Source: Exiguobacterium sp. Leaf196
Lineage (GTDB): Bacteria > Bacillota > Bacilli > Exiguobacteriales > Exiguobacteriaceae
Assembly: GCF_001423965.1 (NCBI RefSeq)
Contig: NZ_LMPV01000009.1
Coordinates: 62,001-126,000 of the forward strand
DNA length: 64,000 nt
Reading direction: 5' to 3'
Part shown: positions 49,630 through 64,000 of the stretch, piece by piece
Layout of the letters: every line of letters starts with the position of its first letter
Numbering within the stretch: position 1 is the stretch's first letter
Program-made: the position numbers and the translations under genes
Notes under the pieces: generated by a model
The model's database searches: none
Told to the model about the DNA's origin: nothing
Seen by the model: the letters and a program-made list of their open reading frames with translations, nothing else

Positions 49630-50643
49630 TCATACAGGTACAGGACCTGTCGAATGACGAACGATCAACTCGACGGGAATGACGTCTTGTGTCGTCATCC
49701 GCTGTTTATCGACAATTTGTTCGATCAAGACTGAAGCCGCATGCTGACCAATCGTTTCCGTATCTTGCCGGACAGTCGTCAGCTTCGGTGTGATGTACTT
49801 CGCCATCTCGATATCATCGTAGCCTACGAGTGAGATATCTGTTGGAATCTGTAAGCCAGCTTCATGAATCGCTTCAATAGCGCCGATTGCCATTTGGTCC
49901 CCTGCCGCAAAGACAGCAGTCGGTCGATCCGGTAGCGCCAGCAACTCTTGCATCGCCCGTTTTCCTTCTTCTCCGGAAAACAACCCACCGTTTGCAATAT
50001 AGCCGTCCGGAATCGGCAGACCGAACTGGGTCATTGCTTGTTTATAACCTTCAATCCTTGCTGCACCAGCATCCGTCGTCGTATCGCCAGCGATATGCGC
50101 AATCCGGCGATGACCTAATTCATATAGATGCTCGACGGCTAGTCGCCCACCCGTAATATTGTCGGAATAGACGACGCTACAATCCGGACTGTACATATCA
50201 ACGACAACGATCGGAATCGTACTTTGAATCAATTCTTGAACGTGCAGATCCAACTGGTCCGAACAGATGACGACAATGCCATCAACCGCTCGGTGTCGAA
50301 AGTGCTCCAAGTAACTCATGTCCCGATTACGTAAATTTCGTGATGCAAAAATCAGATCGTAACCTTGTTGCTCTGTTGCTTTCCGGAAGCTTTCAATGAT
50401 CGCATTAAAGAACGGATGCATCATGCCAACACCATGTGCTTCTGAAAACATGACACCAATCGTCCACGAACGTTTTGTCGAGAGCGATTGAGCATGTGCA
50501 TTCGGCAAGTATCCCATCTCAGCTGCCGCCTGGACGATCTTCGCTTTCGTCTTTTCACTGACATCTGAATAATTATTTAAGGCTTTCGAGACCGTTGTGA
50601 TCGAAAAACCGGTCATCTTCGCTAAATCATAAATTGTTCCCAT
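49630..50643 (-). CDS. LacI-family transcriptional repressor
   Basis: A 337-residue regulator. The ATG at 50643 with GGAG eight bases before it places the helix-turn-helix at the very N-terminus (TIYDLAKMTGFSITTVSKALNN), as in the family. A periplasmic-binding-like ligand domain follows, with YLPNAHAQSL hinge and the conserved SLVGYDDIEMAKYITPKLTTV end. The CGAAAGCGCTTTCG palindrome occurs near its own promoter and twice before the transport operon, so it should control both. The inducer is probably a beta-glucoside. Confidence 0.93.
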   Translation of the reverse strand: MGTIYDLAKMTGFSITTVSKALNNYSDVSEKTKAKIVQAAAEMGYLPNAHAQSLSTKRSWTIGVMFSEAHGVGMMHPFFNAIIESFRKATEQQGYDLIFASRNLRNRDMSYLEHFRHRAVDGIVVICSDQLDLHVQELIQSTIPIVVVDMYSPDCSVVYSDNITGGRLAVEHLYELGHRRIAHIAGDTTTDAGAARIEGYKQAMTQFGLPIPDGYIANGGLFSGEEGKRAMQELLALPDRPTAVFAAGDQMAIGAIEAIHEAGLQIPTDISLVGYDDIEMAKYITPKLTTVRQDTETIGQHAASVLIEQIVDKQRMTTQDVIPVELIVRHSTGPVPV

Positions 50644-50662
50644 ACTACTCACTCCATTTCAC

Positions 50663-50713
50663 CGAAAGCGCTTTCGATAGATTTAGTATAAATGGGAATT
50701 GAAAAAGCTACAA
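50663..50713 (-). promoter_or_regulatory. Promoter and operator of the lacI-type gene
   Basis: Minus strand: TTGTAG (50713-50708), 17-base spacer, TATACT (50690-50685), then the operator CGAAAGCGCTTTCG (50676-50663) about eight bases after the -10 box. This is the classic place for autorepression. Confidence 0.75.
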
Positions 50714-50919
50714 CTGTTATTTTGATTTTTAAATAAATTGTTAAAATTATATAGTAAGACTGTGCAACTACGTATATGTTTCTCTACGTTTCTTTCAATA
50801 CTGTAAGATTACAATATTTTAGAATCACTTTTTTTTTTCACAATTTATGCTAATTTATTAAAGTAAAGTTTACTATACTTTGTGTTTTTCATTTATTACT
50901 AATTTGAGGAGGGGAAACA

Positions 50920-51141
50920 ATGAATAAATCTTTTATTACATCAGGAATTTTTTCGATTTTAATAGGAATTATTACTTTATTTACTATTAAATTATTTACA
51001 GCATATTTAGAACTTACAAAAAATGTAGGTATTGAAGATATTGAGACATATAATCTTAATACATATGCAACTTATTTTTTTGTCATTGGAGTAATTTTAA
51101 TTTTATCAGGATTGTTCATAAATAAATTAAAAAAATTCTAA
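50920..51141 (+). CDS. Small two-pass membrane protein, 73 aa
   Basis: A strong GAGGAGGGG site precedes the ATG. Two hydrophobic helices (about residues 7-28 and 50-68) are joined by a polar loop with ELTKNVGIEDIETYN and end in a basic tail NKLKKF. Codons are AT-rich. A TATACT -10-like box is at 50874-50879 next to a small AGTAAA/TTTACT palindrome. The size and the secreted neighbour would fit an immunity or accessory protein, but nothing proves this. Confidence 0.7.
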   Translation: MNKSFITSGIFSILIGIITLFTIKLFTAYLELTKNVGIEDIETYNLNTYATYFFVIGVILILSGLFINKLKKF

Positions 51142-51222
51142 CCGTTTGTGCATTGACCGCTTTTTTTACTATGTAAGCTTTAATTTTTAATGAAAAAATC
51201 TGAATTTTGGAGTGATTTTAAA

Positions 51223-51966
51223 TTGATTAATAATAAAAAACTCGCAACAATTATAGCTTCCTTATCTATATTGACTACGTTTTTAGGTAATGTACCAAAT
51301 GTCTCAGCAGCTGAAATTTCTGAGGATAAATCATTTTATTCAGAAGAATTTGGTAATTATGTAATCCCATTTTCAGAGAATGAAGATGGCGATGCTAAGG
51401 TACTATCTGAAAAAGAAATTGCTGATGAAAACTCTTTAAACACATTCAGTAGTCAATTAGATGATTCAGAATCTACTGAGGACGTAGATTCTATTAATTC
51501 AGAAGAAAGAGGTTCTACAAAAGCATCTTATCGTGAATACCTTAAATTTAAGCCTACAAAAACTACTAATTATGTAGGAGATCCCTTAAAAGTTGTTTCG
51601 GATATTGGCTGTACGACTAGCTCTTGTTCTATCGGACATGGTGTTACATATACAAAAACTATAACAGTAACTTACGGTGCAGCCTCTGATCTTGAAAAGT
51701 CATTAATAAAATCTTCTTTAAATATTGGCTATTCTTCAGCAAAAGCTAGCACAAGTTCTTATACTTTTAATTTGAAAAAGGGAGAATACGGTTATATCGC
51801 ATTCAAGCCTTATAAAGTTAAAAAAAGTGGCTATTTCTTAAACTGCGGAAATCAAGGAACAGGTTGTCATAAAACTAGTAAAACAGGGTATGTTAGATTA
51901 CCTAAAAAACTCTCTAATGGTAAAGCCGATGGAATTTTCTATTTTGTCTATACATCTAAAAAATAA
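51223..51966 (+). CDS. Secreted protein of unknown function, about 247 aa
   Basis: A signal peptide is clear (basic INNKK, hydrophobic core, cleavage near VSA-AE). I prefer the TTG at 51223, which has GGAG ten bases before it; an ATG at 51190 lacks a site. After an acidic, Ser/Glu-rich linker (about residues 30-100) comes a beta-rich C-terminal domain with four Cys (TTSSC, NCGNQGTGC) and alternating Thr/Ser/Lys strands. It is not recognised; the beta-rich, Thr/Ser-rich end is compatible with a toxin, bacteriocin or surface protein. Confidence 0.7.
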   Translation: MINNKKLATIIASLSILTTFLGNVPNVSAAEISEDKSFYSEEFGNYVIPFSENEDGDAKVLSEKEIADENSLNTFSSQLDDSESTEDVDSINSEERGSTKASYREYLKFKPTKTTNYVGDPLKVVSDIGCTTSSCSIGHGVTYTKTITVTYGAASDLEKSLIKSSLNIGYSSAKASTSSYTFNLKKGEYGYIAFKPYKVKKSGYFLNCGNQGTGCHKTSKTGYVRLPKKLSNGKADGIFYFVYTSKK

Positions 51967-52345
51967 TTAAAAGACCTTCCATTTTGTTAAGTAGTTTCAA
52001 TTAATTAATGGTTTAATCATTAACTGATGAAAAATTTTTACCATTTTACATTTAAAAAATCTATTTCTATGTAAATGCAAAAAGAGCGTTCCAGTTGGTA
52101 CGCATTTTTTGCATTTTTTTCATTTGTTTGATCAATAATTTTATTTTTTCTATGTATAAAGTTGTACATTATTTGTTTAAAAGACTACATGATTTTATAT
52201 TCAGTAACTAATTCACTAGCTATATAAAACTTTTAGCCATTTATACTTAATAAATTAGTAATAGACATACTTCTGTCTTTTTACAAGAACAAACGTTTGG
52301 TATGCTTAAAAGAAATACTGTGCCTCTTATGAAAGGAGCTTTTTC
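51967..52345. other. AT-rich intergenic stretch without a gene
   Basis: Of its 379 bases only one element is clear, the probable terminator at 52086-52110. The rest is A/T-rich with no frame that has a ribosome site, no repeat and no RNA gene that I can see. The promoter of the VOC gene should be near its right end. Confidence 0.6.
52086..52110 (+). terminator. Probable terminator of the secreted protein gene
   Basis: GCGTTCCA and TGGTACGC (one mismatch) with a two-base loop, then ATTTTTT and a second T-run. It is about 120 bases after the stop codon. Confidence 0.6.
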
Positions 52346-52768
52346 ATGCCAATTAACCCGTATCTTGTCTTTAATGGAAATACCCGTGAAGCGGTGACGT
52401 TCTACACTGAGGTGTTCGAGGTAGAGATGCCGGAAATCATGGAGTTCGGACCAGGTCCCGGACCAAATGGTCAACCGTATCCACCGGAGCAACAGTCTTT
52501 GATTTTACATGCACAACTCGTCGTCCATGGCACACGCCTCATGTTCTCAGACGCCATGCCGCAAGATCCCGTGACGTTCGGACAAAACATCACGCTAGCC
52601 CTCCACTTAGCCGATGTAGAGCTTTTGCATGAAACGTTCGCACGGCTCGCTGAAGGCGGCAAGATCATCATGCCGATTCAAGAGACGTTTTGGAGTGAAG
52701 CCTACGGCATTGTCGAAGATGCGTTTGGCGTGCAATGGCAGGTTAATCATGAAACGAGTATGGGCTAA
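52346..52768 (+). CDS. VOC-family protein (PhnB/glyoxalase-like)
   Basis: A 140-residue vicinal-oxygen-chelate fold with the PhnB-type start INPYLVFNGNTREAVTFYTEVF and end YGIVEDAFGVQWQVNHE. Such proteins bind a metal and act on varied small molecules; many are uncharacterised. AAAGGAG precedes the ATG. Composition returns to that of the main chromosome here. Single-gene unit with a strong terminator. Confidence 0.88.
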   Translation: MPINPYLVFNGNTREAVTFYTEVFEVEMPEIMEFGPGPGPNGQPYPPEQQSLILHAQLVVHGTRLMFSDAMPQDPVTFGQNITLALHLADVELLHETFARLAEGGKIIMPIQETFWSEAYGIVEDAFGVQWQVNHETSMG

Positions 52769-52856: not shown

Positions 52857-53492
52857 TTGAATCACCAAGAGCTGTATACGATCTTTCCCCAGCTCGTCTT
52901 ATATCCGAACTTATTTTATCACAATGCGAACGGAATCCGCTTTGAGCTGGGCGATTCAACATTGCTCAAAAACGTTGGTCTAGATGATCCGAATTATCTA
53001 GAGTCCGCCTATCGAAAAGCCCTAACCTTATTCGAAGCCATCCATGCTCCCTCTGATCTTATCACATGGATCGTGCAGGTCAGTCCCTACAAAAGAACAA
53101 GCGGTTGGAAACCGGTCGTGCATAGTGGATTTGTGAAGTACTTGAAGTCCCCTTCTTTACGCTATCGCCTGCGATGCGATCGTACACCACAATATGTGGA
53201 AGAGCATCCCTATGCTACATACACATTGTCTTTGACCTGTACGCGGCAAGAGATTCATTATCCAGCTTTAATCCGTGATATTTGCAGTCATGATGTCACT
53301 TCTCGCCCTTCTTTTATCCATCGTACCTTTTTCTTTAATCCGAGACGAAAGAGTCTGTTTCACATCTATGATGACCGAGGCTGTGACCTGATCGGCGAAA
53401 CACCTGACGCTATCCGTGATCTCTACGATGATTATAAGCATTGGATATTGAACCATGATAAAAACACTATTGATCAGACATTCTCACTATAA
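52857..53492 (+). CDS. DUF3885-like protein
   Basis: A 211-residue cytoplasmic protein starting with TTG at 52857 after GGGAGGGG. The C-terminal part (HIYDDRGCDLIGETPDAIRDLY...WILNHD) matches what I know of DUF3885 proteins of bacilli. The family has no known function; several members lie near contact-dependent or polymorphic toxin genes as possible immunity proteins. No such toxin is adjacent here. Confidence 0.72.
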   Translation: MNHQELYTIFPQLVLYPNLFYHNANGIRFELGDSTLLKNVGLDDPNYLESAYRKALTLFEAIHAPSDLITWIVQVSPYKRTSGWKPVVHSGFVKYLKSPSLRYRLRCDRTPQYVEEHPYATYTLSLTCTRQEIHYPALIRDICSHDVTSRPSFIHRTFFFNPRRKSLFHIYDDRGCDLIGETPDAIRDLYDDYKHWILNHDKNTIDQTFSL

Positions 53493-53524
53493 AGAGGCGA
53501 TTCTTTGACTTAGAATCGCCTCTT
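53492..53524. terminator. Bidirectional terminator
   Basis: Perfect 13-base arms AAGAGGCGATTCT and AGAATCGCCTCTT with a seven-base loop, between convergent genes. The left arm includes the last base of the DUF3885-like stop codon. Confidence 0.9.
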
Positions 53525-53526
53525 AC

Positions 53527-54381
53527 TTAGCTCTCGCTTAAAGAAATCGAACGCACAGTCGACTGAATCAACTGCTTTAACCATTTTTGTCTCACATCTG
53601 TTGAAAAGTCTTCATTTCCAAATACTTCTACTCTAAAGGGAAGCGTTTTTAACAACTGATGTTCCAATGCTTTTCGTTCCCTTAAGATTGCAATCGTCCC
53701 TTCCACTCCTGATAACGAGCGATTCACACCATATGCTTGCTCCGTGTAATAGGATACGAATCCGTCCGCCCATTCTGGTGGACGCTCGTTTAATGCTCTA
53801 CGGAAGCTTCGTTCTACATCCGGTTGATCAACATAGACGAGAACTGGTTGCAATGGCGCGATGATCGTCGCTAAGCGATTAATATACGCTCGTAACGTCT
53901 CTTTCGGTAGATCGTATTTGATGAGTCCCATCGTCAACGGATTTTGCAAGAAACAGCACTCAAAAACATATGTTGTATCCGTCGTTAACGCTTGAGCGAC
54001 GAACGCTTCCCACTTTTTAAAGATCATTGACTGATATAACTCAAATGGTAGTTCATAGATATCTCTTGCTTGCAGAAACGCAAGTACTGCTTCAGGAACA
54101 TCCTGTTTTGACTGCCACTGACGATACGATATTAGCACGTAGTCATTGAACACCTCAGCAAATCGTAAGACATCGAGTGAAGCGTACTTGCTTTGAAAAT
54201 CCGTCCATTCATCCATCGTTAAGTAAGCGATACTCTCATAATCCGCAGGATGGTTGAGATCACCTTCGATATGAAGGCGTGTATTGATTTGTTGATTTTG
54301 TAGTACACGAGTTAATGCTTCAGCTGTTGTTGTTTTGCCTGAGCCTGGGAGTCCTTCAACTAAAAATAAGCTTGTCACCAT
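53527..54381 (-). CDS. P-loop kinase-like NTPase
   Basis: A 284-residue P-loop protein with Walker A GLPGSGKTT (residues 10-18) after a hydrophobic strand, like thymidylate or adenylate kinases and the HipA-unrelated zeta-type kinases. Segment YVFECCFLQNP and a later LVYVDQPDVERSFRRAL, with paired Arg as in lid regions, support nucleotide phosphotransfer. The acceptor is unknown. AGGAGG precedes the ATG. It lies at the left border of the defence island but on the opposite strand to its neighbours. Confidence 0.78.
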   Translation of the reverse strand: MVTSLFLVEGLPGSGKTTTAEALTRVLQNQQINTRLHIEGDLNHPADYESIAYLTMDEWTDFQSKYASLDVLRFAEVFNDYVLISYRQWQSKQDVPEAVLAFLQARDIYELPFELYQSMIFKKWEAFVAQALTTDTTYVFECCFLQNPLTMGLIKYDLPKETLRAYINRLATIIAPLQPVLVYVDQPDVERSFRRALNERPPEWADGFVSYYTEQAYGVNRSLSGVEGTIAILRERKALEHQLLKTLPFRVEVFGNEDFSTDVRQKWLKQLIQSTVRSISLSES

Positions 54382-54520: not shown

Positions 54521-56155
54521 GTGAAAAATCTCTACTTCGAGAAACGCAGATTTACTTATAGTGACGTAATCAATACGCAGTCGGATTTTATAGACGATTA
54601 TCCGATCGTTTACCTATTGTATAATTCAACTAAAGAACAAGCATATGTGGGGCAAACGGTTCAAAAAAATCAAAGATTAAAATCCCATTTAAAAGATTCT
54701 CGACGTAAACAACTTGATCAAACAATTTTAGTTGGACACGAGCAGTTTAACCAATCGGCCACTTATAACATAGAGTCTAATTTGATCAACTTTCTGATTG
54801 CTGACGGCAATTATAAGTTGCAGAACGTCAGTCAAACAGCCTCTCGCTATACTCATAATTATTATCAAAAGTCCTTTTTTAATGAGACGGTCTTCGAAAA
54901 CATTTGGCAACGATTGCGTGAAGAAAGCATTGCTAAAGGAACACTTGAACACCTACGCAATAAAGATGTTTATAAACTTTCTCCATATCGTGAATTGTCT
55001 GAGCAACAACTCGAAGTAAAACAAGCAATACTAGAATATTGCAAAATAAATATTACACAATCAGGACATCATGTATTTATTGTTGAAGGAGATGCCGGGA
55101 CAGGCAAAAGTGTTTTGCTTAGTTCTTTATTCAATACAATCCAGGACCTGTCGAAAGATACAAGTTCCGCTCTTTATCAAACAGACAATTACTTACTTGT
55201 TAATCATAGTGAAATGCTAAAAACGTATAAATCGATTGCGGGAAGCTTACCGAACCTGAAGAAAAAACAATTTCAAAAACCTACACCATTCATAAACACA
55301 TTGAGTAATCAAAACACAATGGTAGACATTGTACTAATTGATGAAGCACACCTACTCTTAACAAAAGAAGATACGTATAACAACTTTCATCAAAAAAATC
55401 AGCTGAACGAAATCATCACACGTAGTAAAGTCACTATTCTAATTTTTGATCCTAAACAAGTATTAAAAATCAAGAGCCACTGGGGACGTACTACTCTTCA
55501 GGAAATCGTTGGTCCTTTCGCAACGAAAACATTACGATTATCCAAGCAATTTCGAATGCAAGCTAGTCAAAAAACATTACATTGGATCAATCGTTTTGTA
55601 GAACGAGAGATTCTACCACTACCATCAGACTCTAACTATGACTTTCAAATCTTCGAAGATCCCGAAGCATTCAAACAAGCAATTTTTCAAAAAAATCAAA
55701 AATATGGACTTTCAAGAATGGTATCAACCTTTGATTATCTTCATAAAAAAGATGGTGCTGACTATTACGTAGACGAGGATGGCATCAACCTTCCCTGGAA
55801 TCGTAGTTATTCAAATATAACGTGGGCCGAACAACCCGAAACGATAAATGAAGTTGGATCAATCTATACAATTCAAGGATTTGATTTAAATTATGTAGGT
55901 GTTGTGCTTGGTCCTTCTATTCAATATGACGAAGAAACTCAGCGGCTAGTCATTGATCCTACGCAGTATAAGGATAAAGGTGCCTTTACTTCGCGTCAGG
56001 ACTTAAGTAAATCAGAAAATGAACAAGCAAAAGAGGACATCATTTTAAACTCATTAAATGTTTTGATGAAGCGAGGCGTAAAAGGACTTTATCTTTATGC
56101 TACGAATCTGCAATTGCGAAAATGTCTATTACAACTAAAGGAGAATGACTCATGA
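54521..56155 (+). CDS. GIY-YIG nuclease fused to a DUF2075 P-loop ATPase
   Basis: A 544-residue two-domain protein. The GTG at 54521 follows AGAGGA. Residues about 27-100 are a GIY-YIG nuclease: VYLLYN, YVG at 42-44, the catalytic Arg52 and metal-binding Glu85. The DUF2075 helicase-like ATPase follows from about 165: Walker A GDAGTGKSV (190-198), DEAH at 274-277, an FRM arginine-finger-like element, and a late YTIQGFDLNYVGVVLG motif. Such fusions occur in defence islands. The stop overlaps the MazG-like start by four bases (ATGA). Confidence 0.87.
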   Translation: MKNLYFEKRRFTYSDVINTQSDFIDDYPIVYLLYNSTKEQAYVGQTVQKNQRLKSHLKDSRRKQLDQTILVGHEQFNQSATYNIESNLINFLIADGNYKLQNVSQTASRYTHNYYQKSFFNETVFENIWQRLREESIAKGTLEHLRNKDVYKLSPYRELSEQQLEVKQAILEYCKINITQSGHHVFIVEGDAGTGKSVLLSSLFNTIQDLSKDTSSALYQTDNYLLVNHSEMLKTYKSIAGSLPNLKKKQFQKPTPFINTLSNQNTMVDIVLIDEAHLLLTKEDTYNNFHQKNQLNEIITRSKVTILIFDPKQVLKIKSHWGRTTLQEIVGPFATKTLRLSKQFRMQASQKTLHWINRFVEREILPLPSDSNYDFQIFEDPEAFKQAIFQKNQKYGLSRMVSTFDYLHKKDGADYYVDEDGINLPWNRSYSNITWAEQPETINEVGSIYTIQGFDLNYVGVVLGPSIQYDEETQRLVIDPTQYKDKGAFTSRQDLSKSENEQAKEDIILNSLNVLMKRGVKGLYLYATNLQLRKCLLQLKENDS

Positions 56156-56451
56156 ATGAAATTGAATCTTTAATAAAAAAAATCGATGACTTTCGGGATG
56201 AGCGGAATTGGAGACAATACCATAATGCTAAAGATTTAGCGATTTCTTTATCGATCGAAGCATCTGAATTACTAGAGGCTTTTCAGTGGAAGACAAGTGA
56301 AGAAGCTTGGGAAGAGAACAAAGAGAATATTAAAGAAGAGATTGCTGATGTTCTGATTTACGCGTTGACTTTATGTAGTGAATTGAATATCGATGTAGAA
56401 AAAATTGTAATAGATAAAATCCGGAAGAATGGGAGAAAATACAAAATTTAA
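56152..56451 (+). CDS. MazG-like nucleotide pyrophosphohydrolase
   Basis: A 99-residue all-alpha NTP pyrophosphatase. The metal motif is ExxE (Glu36, Glu39 in IEASELLEAFQW) and ExxD (Glu63, Asp66 in KEEIADVLIY), as in the dCTPase/RS21-C6 and MazG families. These enzymes split (d)NTPs to NMP and pyrophosphate. AAGGAG lies inside the end of the GIY-YIG-DUF2075 gene and the start codon overlaps its stop, so the two are made in fixed proportion. Nucleotide depletion during phage attack is a plausible role (inference). Confidence 0.9.
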   Translation: MNEIESLIKKIDDFRDERNWRQYHNAKDLAISLSIEASELLEAFQWKTSEEAWEENKENIKEEIADVLIYALTLCSELNIDVEKIVIDKIRKNGRKYKI

Positions 56452-56459
56452 TTTAAATT

Positions 56460-56502
56460 AGAAGGACAATTTCTGTATAGAAACTTCAGGAATTGTCCTT
56501 CT
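56460..56502. terminator. Terminator between the MazG-like and HNH genes
   Basis: AGAAGGACAATT and AATTGTCCTTCT arms with an inner CTG/CAG pair; serves the two convergent units. Confidence 0.78.
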
Positions 56503-56514
56503 TAGTGATTTACA

Positions 56515-57270
56515 TCACTGCTTATAGTAATCATATAATTCATCAATAGTTAAATCTATCCCACTAGAGTTGAGGCGAGCTTTTCTACTGTCAAATAATC
56601 TTTTAATCATATTTTGAATCTCTTCAAATGTACCATAATGAATTTTTCTATGGCACATTGGACAAATAGAAATGATATTAGCATGTGTATCTAAGCTATT
56701 CTTATATTTATTTTGAAACTGTATCGGAATGAGATGATGAGCTTCAACATAATTTTCTTCAGTAAATTTAGATACGAACAACTGATGCGTTCCATCCAAT
56801 TCGCATAAGTATCCAGCTCGTTCCAGTGCCTCTCTAGCATATCTCGGATTACGGAACCAGACCTCTCTTCCATGAACAATGATTTTTTTAGGTGTTGTTT
56901 TAGGAGCCTCTTCCATCCTGATTCCGTTATCAGAATCCGCTAGCAAATACTGGTGAAACTCACGCGTCTCATATGCGTACTCATCCTCTATTTCTCTAAC
57001 TTCAAGTTCTTGTTTCCATCTCAATAAATGATTCAATGCCGCACCATACATATTATTTCCACGTCTGTTCTTATCGATGAAATCTGGATGTTGCATAATT
57101 TTTCTAATCATTTCTTCAGACTCGATATCGAATAGCTCCTTTTCATTAGACAGCCCATATGAATCTAGCTCTCTAGAGACACTATCGATAGCAAAAGCAT
57201 ATTTCTTGATTGATTGTGACGAAACGGTCGATGTCTCTTGCATCCATATAATAAAATTCGATTTGCTCAT
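56515..57270 (-). CDS. HNH endonuclease with an N-terminal helical domain
   Basis: A 251-residue protein. Residues 1-90 are helical and resemble the SAM-like domain seen before HNH or recombinase domains. Residues 150-215 form an HNH nuclease of McrA type: zinc Cys156, Cys203 and Cys206, catalytic pair His178-His179, Asn198, and His207/His211 in CPMCHRKIHYG. It lies downstream of dptH and the 142-aa gene on the same strand, separated from the latter by a terminator. It may be a restriction enzyme or an accessory nuclease. The target DNA or its modification is unknown. Confidence 0.87.
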   Translation of the reverse strand: MSKSNFIIWMQETSTVSSQSIKKYAFAIDSVSRELDSYGLSNEKELFDIESEEMIRKIMQHPDFIDKNRRGNNMYGAALNHLLRWKQELEVREIEDEYAYETREFHQYLLADSDNGIRMEEAPKTTPKKIIVHGREVWFRNPRYAREALERAGYLCELDGTHQLFVSKFTEENYVEAHHLIPIQFQNKYKNSLDTHANIISICPMCHRKIHYGTFEEIQNMIKRLFDSRKARLNSSGIDLTIDELYDYYKQ

Positions 57271-57304
57271 CTCAGCTTCCCCTCTTTAATTTCTTGTTTA
57301 TGAA

Positions 57305-57342
57305 ATGAAGGCTAACTTCGCAAAAACGATGTTAGCCTTCAT
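57305..57342 (-). terminator. Terminator after the 142-aa gene of the dpt operon
   Basis: ATGAAGGCTAAC and GTTAGCCTTCAT arms with a 14-base loop, directly downstream of the 142-aa gene. Confidence 0.82.
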
Positions 57343-57354
57343 AACCATTACTTC

Positions 57355-57783
57355 TCAAACTGCTTGTATAGTCCTTACTATTTCTCCACTTACATAGAAT
57401 TTCTCGTCACTACCTCGCAACTTAATATGATTTTCCCAAATATAGAATCTCCATTTTGCATCATTTGAGTAATCAAGAGTAATTTCCTCCGTCATCAAGC
57501 GACGTAGATTTCTAAATTCAATATAATATACTTTTCCGCCTTCAACACGAATGGCCATAATCGAAATATCTGCTTGATCCAACTCATCTACTTGCTTTGT
57601 AGTTAAATCAAACCATCCATGCTCTTCTTTATATAACTTCGTCTCCGGTGTACAAAGTTTAATCGTTTTATTCTCGCTTGTTACCCCTTGATAAATAATA
57701 CGTTTTTGTCCAATCAAGGATAATGAGCAGTCGTAACGTTGTTCTATCGCCTCTAATACTATTTCTTTTAGTGGAACAGACAT
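57355..57783 (-). CDS. Unknown 142-aa protein following dptH
   Basis: Not recognised. The start at 57783 has AAGGAGG seven bases upstream, 34 bases after the dptH stop, and a terminator follows, so it is probably the last gene of the dptFGH operon. It is alpha/beta with a strand-turn region (ISIMAIRVEGGKVYYIEFRNL, slightly over 20 residues at about 73-93) and no membrane segment. The arrangement of an acidic residue before strand pairs recalls, weakly, small nuclease folds. Codon usage is like that of dptH. Confidence 0.72.
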   Translation of the reverse strand: MSVPLKEIVLEAIEQRYDCSLSLIGQKRIIYQGVTSENKTIKLCTPETKLYKEEHGWFDLTTKQVDELDQADISIMAIRVEGGKVYYIEFRNLRRLMTEEITLDYSNDAKWRFYIWENHIKLRGSDEKFYVSGEIVRTIQAV

Positions 57784-57817
57784 AATATTTCCTCCTTGAT
57801 TTTCAAAAAATGCTTGA

Positions 57818-60800
57818 TCACTTCTCATTCAATGCCGGTATATCTACAATATGCTGACCATTATATGAACGACCTTGCTCATCAAGGAAATGCCCTACAC
57901 TGAGGCACTGTCCTTTTCGCAATTGGCGTAAATCATCCGGATTCGCCATACCAATTCGACTCGCAAGAATTTTGAGTTCGCTTTCAGCAGGAGAAAAATA
58001 TATCTTCGTCCCAGCATTATCTAAAATTGATAATTCATCTTTTGCGAAGTTATTAAAAGTTTGAGTCGCAAACCATGCTGACCAACCAAATTTTCGACCC
58101 TCACGTAAAATTTTTGCTGCCGGCGAACCATCTGTAAATGATAAATTTTGTGCTTCGTCTAATACAACTGGAATGGGTTCATCCTTTGTTCCATCTTGTG
58201 TAAAGTACCATAAATCCCATAGAATGAATTCCGTCATTAATTTCTTAATATCATCTTGGTCGTAACCAGCGAGTTGAATGACGGTCACCTTTCCGCCTGG
58301 TCCAAAATATTCTTTCCATTTATCTTCTGCTTCATAGTCGAATGGATCCATATCAACAAATTGTGTCAATCTACTTGTAATCGATGCGATTACGCTTGAA
58401 GTAGCTATATCCAACTCCTTGATTTCCTTCAATAAATGCTCCATTCTCATATGGTCGCCATGTTTGATGATTCCACGTTTCGTCGCTTCATAAAGCGCAC
58501 TCTTCTGTTGTGGACCGAATGTCTTGTAGACAGCTTGGAATACATCCGCGACACGTGTCGCCACTTCATTAGGCTTTTCTTTCTCAATCCGTCCCACAAC
58601 TTCTTTATCACGACGACGGAATGGATTCAACGGGAATCCTTCATGATAAACAATGCGTTCCGTCAGCTTCCCTTCCATTCGCTTTAAAAAAACTTCATCC
58701 AGTTGTGTTAACGTATAACTACTTGAATAATCTATCACAAGTGCCGATTGTCCACTGTTAGCTAAGTCAAGCAAAATTGATTGAATAAAATAAGTCTTCC
58801 CTTGACCTGATCTTCCACCGATTAGCAAATGACGATTCGATAAATTTTTATCCATGAACTCCCAATGAACTGCTTTACCTAAGCTTCTCCCAATCCAAGG
58901 ACGTATCTCTTTATCAGGCGGTGTCACTACTGGCGATGTCACTACTGGCGATGTCACTACTGGCGGTGTCACTACTGGCGGTGTCACTACTGGCAGCTTC
59001 GGTGGCGATTTAATCACCACACCCTCCGAAAGCTCTTTCATTGAATATGCAAGAGTAGCATAGCCTTCATATTCTGGATATTCAAGCACCACTACACCGT
59101 CTCGTCTTTGACTCGTTGATGCTTCTGCTGCTTTACGGAAAGAGACGACAAAACCTGCACCGAATTCTTTTTCAAGCTCATTCGTAATATCAAAATCGTC
59201 ATTCAAGAGTCCGTCGATTTCTTCACCTGATACTGTATAATCGCGTTCTGGCCAAACCTCATTATGCTTTATCTTGTCAAGATTATTGAGATAGATTCGA
59301 GCAAAATAATTTCTCAGGAACCGCGCATCGAAACCTTCGTCTGCAACAAGATAATCATGCAAGCGTTGCTTTAATTCTTTGACCTGCGAAATTCCTTTAT
59401 CAATGATAGGTGTTTCATTTAAACCAATTTTAACCTCGACCGGATAAAGATGTAATTTAAGTCGACCACCCACTTGTTCAAGACCCATCAACATTAAATC
59501 ATCACTACAATTCCCACGTCTACCAATCGTTTTGCCTGAGAACAATCCATCTTTTCTACTAAGTCCTACGCTCCCAGTCACCCTTACAATTTCCTCCATC
59601 GCAACAGGTACCCATCGAATATTTGGATGGTCAACATGTAGTAAGATTCTTTTTATCGCTGAGACCAGACTCATCTTTTCACGCTTATCATGGCTACGAT
59701 TTTGGACAGCCCGTAACAACCATTCTCCATTAAAAGTATTGAATGCAAGAATGACGTTCTGAATCGCCTCTTTCGTCATCTCTACCTGCTGACTCTGCAT
59801 GATTTCTTCGATGACATTGAAGTAAAGGTTCGATTTATCAGTTACTGTGATTGCATCGTAACTACTCGATGAGGACAGTTGGTCACTGTAATGAACAATG
59901 ACGAGATGGTCGGAAGATTCTTGGAAATATTTCAAATCTACCGACGGATCAATGAATGTCACCCAATGTGCGCTTTCATAGAGAGATTTTAAGAAACGTT
60001 CACTCTCGGTACGCACGTGCATTGCGAGCGCAATACCTTTAGTGTATGCATCATGTCCGCCTCCTTGCATATTGGCGATAAGTTCGTTCATCTGATAACC
60101 AAAACGTGTCAGTTGCGTTCTTCTCGTGTCACTTTCACCGATTCCATACCCTGAACGATATCCACTACTGTCTGTTCGTGAAGAGACACTCGTCGTGAAT
60201 AGTCCATTAAGATTCATACTACTCGGTAAACTCGTCATTAATTGACGTGATATGTTCTCTTCGTTTCGCATCTTATAAAAAGTTACATGCGCATACTCCA
60301 TCGTTTCTTCAAAATCCTTTTTCATATAATGAATCGCAGACTGGAAAGCGACCATCACCTCATCCGCTTCAAAATCTTTTGTCGCGAAATCTATACCGGT
60401 TCGTTCTTTGAAAATTGATGCCGAACTCGCTTCGTTCAGTTCATCGAAGAAACTGGACGTTTTTTCATCTAGTTTATAAGAAGTCACCTCAATGTGGCGT
60501 AATGCATCCAAGTGACCTGACTGACGCACTTGACCTTTAAGCCAATCCACGATACCACGAAGAACTTCACGATCATTCGCAATATTTACGACGTTGATAC
60601 GAAGTGCAGCTTTTTCATCAATAGAGAATAGATATTCATAATGATCAACGAATTGTGTCATCTTCTCTGAAACGATTTTAGCTAAATAACTGCTTGTTTC
60701 TCCTACAGACGCCTCTTCACTCGGCCGATATAAGTGCCACTCTGCCATTCGACTTTCATCAATCGGCATGTATAAATCATCTTGCATCTTTAGATAGGGT

Positions 60801-62881
60801 ACAACATACATTGCTTTCAAACGCCGCAATATATTTGCATCAACTTGTTCTTCAGCTAATTCTGCCGATACCTGCAGCTGATAGGCGACATTTAATGGAG
60901 CGAAAGGTGAGAAATATACGGATTTCCCTTCCCGAATCATTCCCAGACGGAAAAGATTTCGTTCTGCGTCTATCATGACTTGTGAACTTTCTATTTGTTC
61001 GATGCTATCGAGATATGCATCGACATATCGTGTTCCCACCGTAATCATTTCTTCATCATAGTGAATCAAGGAAGGCATTCCGCCTTTTCGCTCGATAGTT
61101 TGTAAAAATTCCATGTATATCTCTTCAAGTGTGTGTGGAAGCTCTAATTCAACTTCCTCCAGTTCATCCAAACGAATTGCAGCAGACCGCATTTTTGTAT
61201 TCGTCCAGTTTTTCTCCATCATCAAATAACGGCGGTCATTCTCATAAATCGTGTAAGGTAGATTATCAATTTCGACACGCTTTCCATCTTCAAGCATTTT
61301 AAAAGAAGAACGAGATTGACGTTTCTTTTCCCATAACTTCGAACCTTCCAATGGAATCGAACGGATTGCAATATCTTTAACGACGATTGGCATCGAAGTT
61401 CGCCCATCCGAGATTCGGAATCGAAACTCATCCTGCTCCTCGATTTGTTCACCTTTAAAAAGTAAGATAGCTCCTTCATCGATAGTTACCGTCTCATCAT
61501 CTACTAGAACAGGAATTTCTGTTTCTCCTTCGCCGATCCGAACACCTCTTCCATCAAAATTCAACCGGATTGCCTGTTTGCTTTTAGGTGTCGTATCGAC
61601 TTGGAAAGAAGAAAAATGAGGTACTAACCATTCCTTCGGACAACGTAAGATGGCAATATTAAATTTATACGTACTCGCCGCTTTATTCTCGTGTTTGTAA
61701 ACCACTCGCTCGAACAACGTTTCACCTGATGAAGCATCAATGTTAACTCGAATTGAGTGTCCGCTCGATACAGCATTTCCTGTCGAGATGAACCGATTAC
61801 TAACGTGACGGTCAAATGGTAACTTTAGTTCGATAGTCGAAACATGTGAAGGAGCAAATAACAATAGATTCCATTCGCGTCGTCCGGCTGTTGTATCTGC
61901 CTTAGGTCGTTTCTCGAGATGGACTTCCTCGATTGGTGTTATATCATCCGTTGATACTTGAATGCCGTTTGCCTCGAAATGAATTACTTTCTTCTCGGAA
62001 GCGACCTCCTCCCACTCAAGAATCTTATTGAAATCCTGTACATACCACTTTTCATCATCACTTAAGGTCGAAGCCCCTTTGTCATACAATTCCTCTAAAC
62101 GATCTCTTGCATTCCCCATCTCGACTAACCGACCTATTTCTTCATGCTTTCGAGTATTCACGTCAAGACGTCGGTCGATTTCTCGTTCACGTTTCATCCA
62201 TTCTCTTGAGTTCACTTCATACCGTGCTTGCTCTTCTAATAAGATACCAAGCCCACTATCTTGGAAGTAATGAAGCGCACGATAATCCGCTTGTTCTAAG
62301 TTCCCCTTTTCTAGTAAAGCAAGCGTCTCCTCGAAATCAAGGAAGGATGTATTTTGCATACGCGTTGTTTGTTCACGATTCTTTAGATAATGCATGAAGG
62401 CGGCTTGTTCTACCTTCGAAAATCGACTGACCTCTAGCAACTCATCCATACTCTTGACCATTTGACTGACGTGTAGTGGAAGTCCCTCACTCATGAGATT
62501 CCGTCCACCGCCACGAATTGAGTCATTAAGCGTGTCGGAAAGAAGGACAAGAGAAGTTCCCTTCCAAATTCCTTTTTGTTCACTCATCTCATTTCGAAGT
62601 GTAACTAAGAAGTCGATACTCGTATCAATCCCTGTTGCAGCAATAACGAATTTTTGACTGCCGTATTCTAAGGAAATTGTCTCATACGTTCGTGTTCCAG
62701 ATGGATGACGGTACTGAAATGGTTTACTCGTCGATAAATTGGAGAGTGCATTATACATTTCTACGACGTGTTTCCTAGAGGGCAAGTGAACATAATATCG
62801 ATCCGTTTGTTGATTTAGTGCCTCTTGCTGAAAGAAGCGATTCAATTGTTGACTAATATGATTAAAGAATGGATTTGACAT
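57818..62881 (-). CDS. dptH: DNA phosphorothioation-dependent restriction protein DptH
   Basis: A very large protein of about 1687 residues. Its C-terminal 350 residues are a HerA/FtsK-like ATPase: Walker A GGRSGQGKT near 1357, Walker B PVVLDEAQNL near 1574, and an ATQTF sensor. The long N-terminal part is beta- and helix-rich without motifs I know, and a Pro/Val/Thr repeat linker (about residues 1295-1320) joins the two. Size, ATPase and the preceding dptG match DptH (DndH) of the Dnd restriction complex, which cuts DNA lacking phosphorothioate marks. The start is taken as ATG 62881; GTG 62896 is possible. It overlaps dptG. Confidence 0.85.
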   Translation of the reverse strand: MSNPFFNHISQQLNRFFQQEALNQQTDRYYVHLPSRKHVVEMYNALSNLSTSKPFQYRHPSGTRTYETISLEYGSQKFVIAATGIDTSIDFLVTLRNEMSEQKGIWKGTSLVLLSDTLNDSIRGGGRNLMSEGLPLHVSQMVKSMDELLEVSRFSKVEQAAFMHYLKNREQTTRMQNTSFLDFEETLALLEKGNLEQADYRALHYFQDSGLGILLEEQARYEVNSREWMKREREIDRRLDVNTRKHEEIGRLVEMGNARDRLEELYDKGASTLSDDEKWYVQDFNKILEWEEVASEKKVIHFEANGIQVSTDDITPIEEVHLEKRPKADTTAGRREWNLLLFAPSHVSTIELKLPFDRHVSNRFISTGNAVSSGHSIRVNIDASSGETLFERVVYKHENKAASTYKFNIAILRCPKEWLVPHFSSFQVDTTPKSKQAIRLNFDGRGVRIGEGETEIPVLVDDETVTIDEGAILLFKGEQIEEQDEFRFRISDGRTSMPIVVKDIAIRSIPLEGSKLWEKKRQSRSSFKMLEDGKRVEIDNLPYTIYENDRRYLMMEKNWTNTKMRSAAIRLDELEEVELELPHTLEEIYMEFLQTIERKGGMPSLIHYDEEMITVGTRYVDAYLDSIEQIESSQVMIDAERNLFRLGMIREGKSVYFSPFAPLNVAYQLQVSAELAEEQVDANILRRLKAMYVVPYLKMQDDLYMPIDESRMAEWHLYRPSEEASVGETSSYLAKIVSEKMTQFVDHYEYLFSIDEKAALRINVVNIANDREVLRGIVDWLKGQVRQSGHLDALRHIEVTSYKLDEKTSSFFDELNEASSASIFKERTGIDFATKDFEADEVMVAFQSAIHYMKKDFEETMEYAHVTFYKMRNEENISRQLMTSLPSSMNLNGLFTTSVSSRTDSSGYRSGYGIGESDTRRTQLTRFGYQMNELIANMQGGGHDAYTKGIALAMHVRTESERFLKSLYESAHWVTFIDPSVDLKYFQESSDHLVIVHYSDQLSSSSSYDAITVTDKSNLYFNVIEEIMQSQQVEMTKEAIQNVILAFNTFNGEWLLRAVQNRSHDKREKMSLVSAIKRILLHVDHPNIRWVPVAMEEIVRVTGSVGLSRKDGLFSGKTIGRRGNCSDDLMLMGLEQVGGRLKLHLYPVEVKIGLNETPIIDKGISQVKELKQRLHDYLVADEGFDARFLRNYFARIYLNNLDKIKHNEVWPERDYTVSGEEIDGLLNDDFDITNELEKEFGAGFVVSFRKAAEASTSQRRDGVVVLEYPEYEGYATLAYSMKELSEGVVIKSPPKLPVVTPPVVTPPVVTSPVVTSPVVTPPDKEIRPWIGRSLGKAVHWEFMDKNLSNRHLLIGGRSGQGKTYFIQSILLDLANSGQSALVIDYSSSYTLTQLDEVFLKRMEGKLTERIVYHEGFPLNPFRRRDKEVVGRIEKEKPNEVATRVADVFQAVYKTFGPQQKSALYEATKRGIIKHGDHMRMEHLLKEIKELDIATSSVIASITSRLTQFVDMDPFDYEAEDKWKEYFGPGGKVTVIQLAGYDQDDIKKLMTEFILWDLWYFTQDGTKDEPIPVVLDEAQNLSFTDGSPAAKILREGRKFGWSAWFATQTFNNFAKDELSILDNAGTKIYFSPAESELKILASRIGMANPDDLRQLRKGQCLSVGHFLDEQGRSYNGQHIVDIPALNEK
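58921..58995. repeat. Five tandem 15-base repeats within dptH
   Basis: The unit GTGTCACTACTGGCG occurs five times in a row, with A/G at the first base and one terminal change. On the coding strand it gives a repeated five-residue P-V-V-T-P/S unit. It is a flexible linker and, because units are whole codons, copy number could vary without breaking the frame. Confidence 0.92.
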
Positions 62882-64000
62882 ATTGAGCATCCCCACTATC
62901 GCTTTTCTTTTCCAAATAATTCAATTTATCAAGTAGTTTAACGACTTCTTCTTTCGAATTATAGTCGAACCAAACACCTCGTTCTTCGAGCCGCTTCCAT
63001 AGCTCACGTAGTTCGATTCGCTCCTCTTTTACTGATACTGCAACCAGCATCAATAACTGTTCTTGTGACAAGGATAATAACGTTCCAAGTGAACCACCAT
63101 TTTTCCGATAGAATTGTTTTACAAGCATTTCAAGTGTCTTCGGATATCGGGAATTCAATTCTTTCGATACTCCCATCCGAATCGTTCGATGTAAATCTTC
63201 GAAGGCATCCCGCAATGTTTTTCCTTCTAAATTGTGTGGTACATCCTGTTTCGTCCAAGTAGCATATTCTTCTTCTAACCATTCATAAATCGATGATATG
63301 AATGGTTGTCTCCCTTCTGGTTTTTCAGCGAAAAACTCGAAGTAGTCATGGTATAGACGGTTCTTATCATGACCAATAAAATCGTTCATCGATAAAATAT
63401 TCAATGCATGCTCATGCGCATAGAAATGTTCCAGTCCGTACTTAATCAATCTGTATCCACTCTCATAATTTTCACGCCATTTTGCTCCCTTTTCCCATCG
63501 AAGAAGAAAGTATAAAGGTTGAAGATGGTGCGCCTCAAAATGCCCAATTTTGTTCACTTTGAAGATAGTTTGTGTAATCGATGTGAATGCATAATGAACA
63601 AGTAATGCTGACAGATTCTCGATTAGAAATTTTGGATTACGCCGCATATGTGCTACGTCCTCTTGAAAACGTTCCTCAAGTCCAGGAAATAATGAGCGAT
63701 ATGTCTCTTCTCCTTGATCGTAGCGCGCTACTGGAGATAATTGCTCCATGAGTACTGTAGTGATGATATCCATTTCCTCAGTCGTCTGGAAGTGGTCATG
63801 TAAGACAGTTCGGTTTTCTCTCGCATATGTGTCATATAGATACCGAGCAAAGTCGATTTCCCCTACTTGTTCTCGTTCATTTTCCGAAAGAGGTACCCGC
63901 TCTAATTGCTCAATTTTATCGATTCGCTGACTTGTTACGTCATGATTTGATTCTTCTAGATAGTACTCAAACAGTTGCTTAGACTCATCATCGTCGAATT
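62862..64000 (-). CDS. dptG: DNA phosphorothioation-dependent restriction protein DptG, partial
   Basis: The frame is open from 62862 to the right edge, giving at least 379 residues of the C-terminal part; the start lies outside the window. It is a soluble helical protein with family-type stretches such as FEAHHLQPLYFLLRWEKG and YGLEHFYAHEHALNILSMNDF. It overlaps dptH by 20 to 35 bases, as expected for coupled dptG-dptH. DptG is a required part of the DndFGH restriction complex; its biochemical role is not well known. An internal ATG at 63773 is not the true start, because coding continues upstream of it. Confidence 0.8.
   Translation of the reverse strand, partial: FDDDESKQLFEYYLEESNHDVTSQRIDKIEQLERVPLSENEREQVGEIDFARYLYDTYARENRTVLHDHFQTTEEMDIITTVLMEQLSPVARYDQGEETYRSLFPGLEERFQEDVAHMRRNPKFLIENLSALLVHYAFTSITQTIFKVNKIGHFEAHHLQPLYFLLRWEKGAKWRENYESGYRLIKYGLEHFYAHEHALNILSMNDFIGHDKNRLYHDYFEFFAEKPEGRQPFISSIYEWLEEEYATWTKQDVPHNLEGKTLRDAFEDLHRTIRMGVSKELNSRYPKTLEMLVKQFYRKNGGSLGTLLSLSQEQLLMLVAVSVKEERIELRELWKRLEERGVWFDYNSKEEVVKLLDKLNYLEKKSDSGDAQYVKSIL

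What the first reader, a model, noticed from the sequence alone, without database searches (positions are those of the whole stretch)
54521..64000. Composite defence island: dptG-dptH plus four accessory genes
Seen: dptG, dptH and a 142-aa gene on the minus strand, then an HNH nuclease, and convergently a GIY-YIG-DUF2075 gene coupled to a MazG-like gene. Known: DptF, DptG and DptH form the restriction part of the Dnd phosphorothioation system. Inferred: the remaining genes are either accessory to Dnd or separate antiphage units in the same island. I do not recall this exact set as a described system.
Basis: partly seen in the sequence, partly recalled or inferred. Interest (0 to 1): 0.8.

Follow-up and report, generated by a model that had tools for sequence, protein, structure and literature searches.

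The report
Defence hotspot with solitary DptFGH
This stretch is a chromosomal slot where related bacteria keep swapping antivirus systems; here it holds a DNA-cutting complex (DptFGH) that usually relies on sulphur-marked DNA to spare the host, yet the key sulphur-marking gene was not found in this genome, so the complex probably recognises 'self' in some other way.

Summary
The genes are real. dptG and dptH are confirmed, and dptF lies just past the window's edge. But no dnd modification genes follow, and DndC was not found in the genome. So this is standalone DptFGH, a known kind (PMC10853773), not the restriction half of a phosphorothioation system. The co-localisation is explained by a defence hotspot (lacI-VOC to PLD-helicase-MazG-RidA): in 7 of 10 relatives scanned it holds other known systems (BREX, Tmn, type I RM and more). 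GIY-YIG-SLFN/MazG and the 142-aa gene occur in the slot without DptFGH, so they are separate modules. The HNH gene looks ordinary; the 142-aa protein probably has a PD-(D/E)XK fold. New here: (1) DptFGH without DndC forms two stable clades. (2) Half of those genomes (15 of 30, this one included) carry a Sau3AI-type cytosine-methylating RM system, in several flanking DptFGH, against 0 of 20 genomes with Dnd. This suggests, but does not show, cytosine methylation as a replacement self-mark. (3) Two unrelated nuclease-helicases, GIY-YIG-SLFN and PLD-SF2, each recur in a pair with a MazG whose metal-binding residues are intact.

The parts
49630..52768 (.). Left flank of the hotspot: lacI-type regulator (49630-50652 -) and VOC-family-like gene (52346-52768 +; both names by eye, not scanned)
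   Evidence: Found beside the slot in 9 of 13 other genus-g1 genomes examined; in 4 of 13 it was not seen in the fetched DNA
52857..54381 (.). DUF3885 gene (52857-53492 +) and P-loop kinase-like gene (53527-54381 -; only weak Pfam matches), slot edge
   Evidence: Pfam; both also in G030 (same species) and G035, kinase also in G020
54521..56155 (+). GIY-YIG nuclease fused to SLFN-g3 helicase (first gene of a pair)
   Evidence: Pfam; Y31,Y42,G44,R52,H56,E85 and Walker K196,D274,E275 invariant in 29 of 29 homologues aligned, Y34 and N87 vary; GC 35% against 46-49% for flanks
56152..56451 (+). MazG-like pyrophosphohydrolase (MazG1), overlaps the previous gene by 4 bp
   Evidence: PF12643; adjacent in 22 of 30 loci, 8 of the 16 outside the family; E36,E39,E42,E63,D66 invariant in 24 of 24
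56460..56502 (.). 16-bp inverted repeat separating MazG1 from the HNH gene (terminator-like, but the terminator scan did not list it)
56515..57270 (-). HNH endonuclease, probably a separate unit
   Evidence: PF01844; among listed plasmid relatives, annotations are mainly HNH endonuclease, restriction endonuclease or DUF3578 protein
57305..57342 (.). 16-bp inverted repeat downstream of the 142-aa gene (terminator-like, not listed by the terminator scan)
57355..57783 (-). 142-aa protein (p142), probable PD-(D/E)XK fold, function unknown
   Evidence: AF2 pLDDT 77; VIA best matches Hjc, RecU, NhoI, PvuII and other REase-fold chains, Z 5-7; Foldseek alone not significant; beside PLD-helicase in G028, G037, G024 without DptFGH
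57818..62896 (-). dptH, 1692 aa: N-terminal Dpt region, REase motif (S1131-D-D...E1154-x-K1156), C-terminal HerA/FtsK-type ATPase
   Evidence: TIGR03237, PADLOC DndH, PF01935; REase residues invariant in 15 of 15 clade-A homologues
62862..64000 (-). dptG (457 aa, continues to 64235 outside the window), overlaps dptH by 35 bp; dptF, PLD-helicase, MazG2 and RidA follow outside the window (64236-69656 on the window's scale)
   Evidence: TIGR03236, PADLOC DndG; L002 ORFs

Best explanation
A chromosomal defence hotspot of an Exiguobacterium-type genome. Shown: the slot lies between a lacI/VOC flank and a widely conserved MazG-PLD/SF2-helicase pair plus RidA, and its interior is swapped between relatives. 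In this genome it holds at least three units that can occur apart or differ in composition: (a) a standalone DptFGH complex, (b) a GIY-YIG-SLFN helicase/MazG pair, (c) an HNH nuclease; plus p142, a small protein of probable REase fold found in the slot with different cargo. Inferred mechanism: DptF (nucleotide-binding), DptG (DNA-binding) and DptH (target recognition, REase, HerA-type translocase) assemble on incoming DNA, translocate and nick it. Since phosphorothioate synthesis seems absent, self DNA must be spared by something else. The GIY-YIG-SLFN and PLD-SF2 proteins are predicted nuclease-helicases that attack invader DNA or replication intermediates, with MazG destroying or sensing (modified) dNTPs. 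No activity was measured.
For: dptF/G/H confirmed, no dnd genes beside them, no DndC match genome-wide. Same slot in relatives with other cargo: BREX, Tmn + type II RM, Mza-like (left flank not seen), SspF/SspH-like in part + DruA-like, DruE-like + type I RM (left flank not seen), type IIG, DUF262-type. GIY-YIG-SLFN, MazG1 and p142 present in G028 at the same place without DptFGH or HNH. The PLD-helicase is full length in 30 of 38 family genomes, 26 of which lack DptH. GC steps: GIY/MazG1/HNH/p142 32-35%, dptFGH 39-41%, outer flanks and PLD/MazG2/RidA 46-49%. Tree: the rows without DndC need only 3 changes, against a shuffled mean of 24. PADLOC matches around GIY-YIG-SLFN elsewhere: 66 models (at least 11 proteins of 101) against 5 models (at most 5 proteins of 101) in control stretches.
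Against: In L068 (Psychrobacillus insolitus) GIY-YIG-SLFN, DptFGH and PLD-helicase-MazG2 again lie together, and L098 has DptFGH next to GIY-YIG-SLFN-MazG1. PLD/SF2-helicase relatives lie in 9 of 30 standalone DptFGH loci (4 of them Exiguobacterium) against 1 of 47 Dnd+ loci (Fisher 6e-4). So some functional linkage is not excluded. p142 starts about 35 bp past dptH's stop and may be co-transcribed with it. The genome is 13 contigs (100% complete by the tool), so a plasmid-borne dndC could be missing. Only DndC, not DndB/D/E, was searched genome-wide. No phage assay was seen for any gene here. For 3 of 10 scanned slots PADLOC named no established system. 5 of the 18 other genus-g1 genomes lack the full-length PLD-helicase and their slot was not examined.
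Confidence: 0.8

Rival explanations
1. Methylation-gated DptFGH: in standalone lineages DptFGH spares DNA carrying GATC cytosine methylation made by a Sau3AI-type methylase, in place of phosphorothioate. In this genome the methylase would act in trans from contig C12. (Can hold together with the best explanation.)
For: C5-MTase of one subfamily (48-100% identical to the L026 gene) together with a Sau3AI homologue in 15 of 30 standalone genomes (clade A 11 of 16, clade B 4 of 14, own genome included) against 0 of 20 Dnd+ genomes, all of whose PF00145 matches were looked at; Fisher 8e-5. Linked to dptFGH in both clades: methylase within the fetched locus in L022, L023, L025, L026, L037, L046, L060, about 10 kb away in L024 and about 14 kb in L098; L046 reads sau3AI-dptF-G-H-MTase-vsr on one strand. 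None in 76 other slots, module neighbourhoods and control stretches. The own-genome REase is a full-length Sau3AI homologue (4pxg, 1.4e-70). PT-coupled DptFGH harms its host without its mark (passages of PMC11662687).
Against: 15 of 30 standalone genomes lack this full-length methylase, 5 of them in clade A, so it cannot be obligatory. In the own genome it is on another contig. Genomes are related, so the Fisher value is too small. Base rate tested only against 20 Dnd+ genomes (of 47 Dnd+ loci). Both may simply be RM genes that cluster. GATC specificity is taken from Sau3AI (recalled), not tested.
Confidence: 0.2
2. All island genes (DptFGH, p142, HNH, GIY-YIG-SLFN/MazG) form one new composite system.
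For: Close packing; p142 about 35 bp from dptH; GIY-YIG-SLFN near DptFGH in L068 and L098.
Against: GIY-YIG-SLFN/MazG1 and p142 occur without DptFGH. Of 80 DptF loci only 3 have GIY-YIG-SLFN within about 10 kb, one of them the helicase part only. Inverted repeats separate MazG1, HNH and p142. GC differs between units.
Confidence: 0.06
3. Decayed Dnd system: dndBCDE was recently lost, leaving a dead or silent DptFGH.
For: No dndC match in the genome.
Against: ORFs open; REase, Walker A and B motifs present; rows without DndC form two clades and one single row, not scattered tips.
Confidence: 0.04
4. DptFGH here uses PT made by an unlinked Ssp-type or divergent modification system.
For: Sequence searches miss divergent enzymes; the SspB search (PF13182) rang nowhere, so it says nothing.
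Against: The DndC model picks up remote relatives in 5 of 14 control genomes but nothing at E <= 0.001 in this genome.
Confidence: 0.06

Closest known systems
Standalone DndFGH/DptFGH (Rakesh, Aravind, Krishnan 2024, PMC10853773)
   Same: DptF-G-H operon, REase and HerA/FtsK-type domain in DptH, no modification genes
   Different: The sections read do not describe this hotspot; the words Sau3AI, MutH, Vsr and GATC do not occur in its main text, so the Sau3AI-type RM association seems new; the supplements were not read
DndABCDE-DndFGH phosphorothioation restriction system
   Same: DptF, DptG, DptH
   Different: No dndBCDE next to it, no DndC match in the genome
HKD(PLD)-SF2 helicase nucleases near Dnd modification genes (PMC10853773 section 17); PADLOC mREase_IV
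   Same: PLD + SF2 helicase; PADLOC mREase_IV 3.5e-87; solved relative 7clg
   Different: Here a gene present in most genomes of the family, in a 4-bp-overlap pair with MazG, not next to dnd modification genes
MazG as predicted defence domain (DefensePredictor, PMC13092281)
   Same: MazG named among predicted, unvalidated defence domains
   Different: Pairing with GIY-YIG-SLFN or PLD-SF2 helicase is not mentioned in the section read
Chromosomal defence hotspots (e.g. Pseudomonas core hotspots, PMC10250203, listing only)
   Same: Conserved flanks, swapped defence cargo
   Different: This one lies at MazG-PLD helicase-RidA in Exiguobacterium-type genomes

Membership tests
Dnd phosphorothioation restriction-modification system | DptF, DptG and DptH together | tested here: met
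Dnd phosphorothioation restriction-modification system | DndC (PT synthesis) in the genome | tested here: not met
   TIGR03183 no match at E <= 0.001 in G000
Dnd phosphorothioation restriction-modification system | dndBCDE next to dptFGH | tested here: not met
   to the right: PLD-helicase, MazG, RidA by family scan; to the left: the accessory genes and flank
Dnd phosphorothioation restriction-modification system | PT-modified DNA | not testable with these tools
   needs mass spectrometry
Standalone DptFGH | open DptFGH genes without modification module | tested here: met
   tree places it in a 16-row clade, 15 rows without DndC match and one with a weak DndC-like match
Standalone DptFGH | REase and HerA/FtsK ATPase residues intact | tested here: met
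   REase residues invariant in 15 of 15 homologues; HerA Walker motifs present in this DptH, not counted in others
PD-(D/E)XK superfamily (p142) | fold | tested here: inconclusive
   VIA Z up to 7.2 to Hjc with most top rows REase-like; Foldseek E > 0.2
PD-(D/E)XK superfamily (p142) | catalytic (D/E)xK motif | tested here: inconclusive
   P46 and K49 invariant, E47 in 5 of 7 sequences; no structure-based residue alignment was available
MazG pyrophosphohydrolase | conserved acidic metal-binding residues (motif recalled) | tested here: met
   invariant acidic residues in 24 of 24 MazG1 and 22 of 22 MazG2 homologues aligned
Sau3AI-type RM (contig C12, own genome) | full-length Sau3AI homologue plus C5-MTase | tested here: met
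   4pxg 1.4e-70, PF02976, PF00145, Vsr between them
Sau3AI-type RM (contig C12, own genome) | GATC specificity | not tested
   inferred from the Sau3AI name; recalled

The most novel reading that the evidence does not exclude
In its PT-independent lineages DptFGH has swapped its self-mark: it is gated by GATC cytosine methylation from a Sau3AI-type methylase (linked or in trans) instead of phosphorothioate, making a translocating DptFGH restriction complex that reads a base modification. Sau3AI, DptFGH and methylase would then be one two-nuclease, one-mark system, as the collinear sau3AI-dptFGH-MTase-vsr order in L046 suggests.
Probability: 0.2. Interest if true: 0.85.

Novelty: new variant of a known kind. 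Interest (0 to 1): 0.6.

Why it matters
PT-coupled DptFGH damages its own host when the PT mark is removed (PMC11662687, passages), so how standalone DptFGH avoids suicide is an open question. Two PT-free clades, with a recurrent cytosine RM partner in half of their genomes, turn that question into a simple test. The hotspot gives a map of where Exiguobacterium-type genomes keep defence genes. The two MazG-coupled nuclease-helicase pairs are defence candidates for which the paper searches made here showed no description.

Tried and rejected
Rejected: one integrated Dnd system (no DndC match). Rejected as obligate partner: PLD-helicase/MazG2. It adjoins DptFGH in 4 of 4 solitary loci of the family, but is full length in 26 family genomes without DptH, and among 13 DptH genomes outside the family in a 398-genome sample none has it within 10 kb at E <= 1e-120; G180 has it 32 kb away. 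Against this rejection: relatives of it lie in 9 of 30 standalone loci against 1 of 47 Dnd+ loci. Rejected as obligate partner: GIY-YIG-SLFN. It is in 41 of 398 genomes at E <= 1e-60; of the 13 outside-family DptH genomes only G447 has it, about 130 kb away; inside the family G032 has it about 9 kb from a Dnd-type dptH. Rejected: long DptH as marker of standalone systems; DptH of about 1700 aa is common with Dnd too. Rejected: DptF N-terminal extension as marker; most DptF have one. Rejected as obligatory: C5 methylation (no PF00145 match over the cut-off in 10 of 30 standalone genomes).

Led nowhere: base-exact insertion points (junctions too diverged); first p142 model (pLDDT 57); PF13182 for SspB in 34 genomes (nothing rang in controls either); p142 in plasmids and phages (no match); PDB sequence searches for p142, DptH and GIY-YIG-SLFN (no match). 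tRNA-splicing endonucleases and MepB also appear among p142's structural rows, and sliding clamps and a monooxygenase among its non-significant Foldseek rows. A crude pattern scan for N6/N4-type methyltransferase motifs in the flanks of 15 standalone loci without the Sau3AI-type methylase found none.

Corrections: some notebook entries are off. Recounted here: MazG1 22 of 30 loci; MazG2 16 immediate plus 1 with an ORF between, of 19; control set for one search was 8 stretches, not 10. The methylase count left some matches of G457 and G047 unseen at first; they were fetched and compared and did not change it. G062 (clade B) has a short piece 53% identical to the L026 methylase at the end of L057 and is counted as lacking it.
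Full report
WHAT IS THERE. The window is G000:C9:62001-126000 of a 2.98 Mb, 13-contig genome. Extending right gives dptF at once, then a 774-aa PLD + SF2 helicase (PADLOC mREase_IV 3.5e-87), a 107-aa MazG-like gene (MazG2) and RidA. No dnd modification gene follows.

NO PHOSPHOROTHIOATION FOUND. The DndC model finds nothing in the genome at E <= 0.001, although the same model picks up remote relatives in 5 of 14 control genomes. In the family (38 genomes) 7 have DptH. Three of them (G001, G026, G032) have DndC about 3.6-5.7 kb from it, and four (G000, G003, G006, G013) have no match anywhere. PMC10853773 (abstract and sections 12, 17, 20, 21, 22, 25 read; passages by search) already describes DndFGH as commonly decoupled and standalone, so the kind is known.

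STABLE PT-FREE LINEAGES. A scan of named genomes with the DptF alignment gave 100 relatives, of which the best 80 were kept. DndC was then sought in 50 whole genomes, chosen from 58 whose flank showed none: 18 had a match, 17 over the cut-off. A tree of 78 DptH N-terminal parts (quick method, SH-aLRT support) puts the 30 rows without DndC into clade A (16 rows: this window, 14 others, and L023 whose genome has a weak DndC-like match), clade B (14 rows) and one single row (L069). Three changes suffice, against a shuffled mean of 24. DptH of about 1700 aa also occurs with Dnd, so length is not a marker.

A DEFENCE HOTSPOT. In 13 of the 18 other genus-g1 genomes, those with a full-length PLD-helicase, the surroundings of PLD-helicase-MazG2-RidA were read over 34-38 kb (26 kb in one). 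In 9 of 13 the lacI/VOC left flank of the window is on the other side; in 4 it was not seen in the fetched DNA. The interior differs. PADLOC (10 genomes scanned) names BREX (G024), Tmn plus type II RM (G030, the same species), MzaB/C/E plus a methylase (G025, left flank not seen), SspF/SspH-like (SspH match only over the C-terminal ATPase part) plus DruA-like (G034), DruE-like plus type I RM (G027, left flank not seen), type IIG (G033), a DUF262-type Orf5/HEC-06 protein (G020), a TnpB/Cas12f-like protein (G029), a helicase only (G036), and nothing in three scanned proteins of G035. G028 shows the window's arrangement without DptFGH and HNH: lacI-VOC-GIY-YIG-SLFN-MazG1-p142-PLD-helicase-MazG2-RidA. 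G020 has GIY-YIG-SLFN-MazG1, and G024 and G037 have p142 next to PLD-helicase. None of these has DptH. GC steps agree with separate arrivals. In genus g2 dptFGH sits on the other side of the PLD-helicase-MazG2 pair and diverges from it, so DptFGH may have reached this pair more than once; the tree does not settle that.

ASSOCIATION TESTS. GIY-YIG-SLFN: 41 of 398 Bacilli genomes at E <= 1e-60. PLD-helicase: 82 of 398 at E <= 1e-120. DptH: 20 of 398. Outside the family none of the 13 DptH genomes has either within 10 kb at those limits. Among the 80 DptF loci, GIY-YIG-SLFN lies within about 10 kb in 3 (L068, L098, and L088 with the helicase part only), and PLD-helicase at 44% identity or more over most of its length in 6 (3 of them Exiguobacterium; L055 cut by the locus end). 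With a more distant query, SF2/PLD-helicase relatives lie in 9 of 30 standalone loci (4 Exiguobacterium) against 1 of 47 Dnd+ loci, so an island-level association is real, an obligate one is not. Around GIY-YIG-SLFN in 10 loci outside the family (7 genus codes), 101 neighbouring proteins hit 66 PADLOC models at 1e-30; the 25 shown include PtuA and PtuB (2 proteins each), ThsA and ThsB (2 each), HamA, HamB and PDC-M39, i.e. at least 11 proteins. 101 control proteins from 8 stretches hit 5 models, one protein each. GIY-YIG-SLFN is therefore a defence-island gene in its own right.

TWO MAZG-COUPLED NUCLEASE-HELICASES. In this genome both pairs overlap by 4 bp: GIY-YIG-SLFN then MazG1, and MazG2 then PLD-helicase. 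MazG1 follows GIY-YIG-SLFN in 22 of 30 loci, 9 genus codes; 8 of the 16 loci outside the family have it, and the 8 loci without a BLAST match showed no other ORF with the MazG-type motif. MazG2 directly precedes PLD-helicase in 16 of 19 loci outside the family, with one more where an ORF lies between (19 of the 52 matching genomes there). The nuclease, helicase and MazG residues named are invariant in the homologues aligned, except Y34 and N87 of the GIY-YIG part. PMC13092281 (section 8) lists MazG among predicted, unvalidated defence domains. The searches 'MazG GIY-YIG defense helicase' (1 paper), 'DUF2075 GIY-YIG' (0), 'MazG antiphage nuclease operon pyrophosphohydrolase' (2) and three of 'MazG, phospholipase D, helicase, phage defense' (18, 12 listed) showed no description of either pair; apart from PMC13092281 (section 8) and passages of PMC12839542, I judged these papers from the listing only. 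Inferred role: MazG removes or senses unusual dNTPs while the helicase-nuclease attacks DNA.

p142 AND HNH. p142 occurs in 7 of 398 genomes. In G363 it lies between hsdM-S-R-like and McrB-McrC-like genes (names from ORF sizes and sequence by eye). With 7 sequences AF2 gives pLDDT 77. The structural second look is dominated by PD-(D/E)XK proteins (Hjc Z 7.2, RecU, NhoI, PvuII, SPARDA, DpnI), but Foldseek alone is not significant and Z under 8 can be a common arrangement. The HNH gene has many plasmid relatives (1388 records, 1 covering 80% of it), the listed ones matching mostly its C-terminal half and annotated mainly HNH endonuclease or DUF3578 proteins. Inverted repeats at 56460-56502 and 57305-57342 bound it; the terminator scan did not list them.

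A CANDIDATE SELF-MARK. Clustering all neighbours of 29 standalone loci showed, besides DptF/G/H, a C5-cytosine methylase, a Sau3AI-like endonuclease and Vsr in several genera of both clades. Within the loci (30 standalone, the window's L002 included, against 47 Dnd+, 6 of these presumed from other dnd genes): methylase 8 against 0, Sau3AI-like 8 against 0, Vsr 5 against 0. One of the 8 methylase hits (L088) is only 28% identical. Dnd+ flanks are partly filled by dnd genes, which biases this comparison, so I searched whole genomes with PF00145: 20 of 30 standalone (a weak 20-bit match in G085 not counted) against 5 of 20 Dnd+ (Fisher 0.009). The methylase of one subfamily (at least 48% identical to the L026 gene), in each case with a Sau3AI homologue, is in 15 of 30 standalone genomes and 0 of 20 Dnd+ genomes (Fisher 8e-5; relatedness not corrected). 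The own genome has it: C5-MTase 73% identical, Vsr, and a full-length Sau3AI homologue (4pxg 1.4e-70) at C12:100621-103882. The methylase lies beside dptFGH in seven loci of both clades, and in L046 the order sau3AI-dptF-dptG-dptH-methylase-vsr is collinear with gaps of 131 and 271 bp by ORF limits. It is in none of 76 other slots, module neighbourhoods and control stretches (one unrelated 26% methylase match in G030). Against this: half of the standalone genomes lack it, and 10 of 30 have no C5-methylase match over the cut-off. PT-coupled DptFGH and DndI are harmful without the PT mark (PMC11662687, passages), which is why a replacement mark is expected. The main text of PMC10853773 does not hold Sau3AI, MutH, Vsr or GATC; a search for Sau3AI with DndFGH gave two papers, one read in passages and unrelated, the other seen only in the listing.

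VERDICT. The locus itself is a new example of known kinds: defence hotspot and standalone DptFGH. The two clades, the Sau3AI-type partner and the MazG-coupled nuclease-helicases are the parts worth an experiment.

Noticed in passing
L018:10311-12110, L135:15511-17310: DUF262-type genes: one (named by eye) directly follows the short, Dnd-linked dptH of G001, another (PADLOC Orf5/HEC-06) sits in the slot of G020; PMC11662687 (passages) describes DndI as such a protein.
   Followed up: partly
L018, L019, L020 (dptH): The Dnd-linked DptH of this family are only 1340-1361 aa and show no match to the C-terminal HerA/FtsK ATPase; so do four other Dnd+ loci of 1326-1329 aa (L062, L071, L073, L074). 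DptFGH without its own HerA domain may need another translocase.
   Followed up: partly
L139 and L152 (G034 slot): SspF/SspH-like genes with a DruA-like gene occupy the same hotspot in a relative; whether a modification module exists in that genome was not tested beyond DndC (a weak match only).
   Followed up: no
L230:9658-10104: p142 homologue between type I RM-like and McrBC-like genes in another family: p142 seems to follow restriction systems of different kinds.
   Followed up: partly
L210:7459-9747: Another SLFN-type helicase without GIY-YIG match sits beside a MazG1-type gene and close to a PLD-helicase.
   Followed up: no
window:51190-51966: DUF6060 protein at the hotspot's left edge (PF19535); its N-terminus looks like a secretion signal by eye.
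   Followed up: no
L003:1772-2299: NUMOD4-domain gene (PF07463) about 14 kb right of RidA.
   Followed up: no
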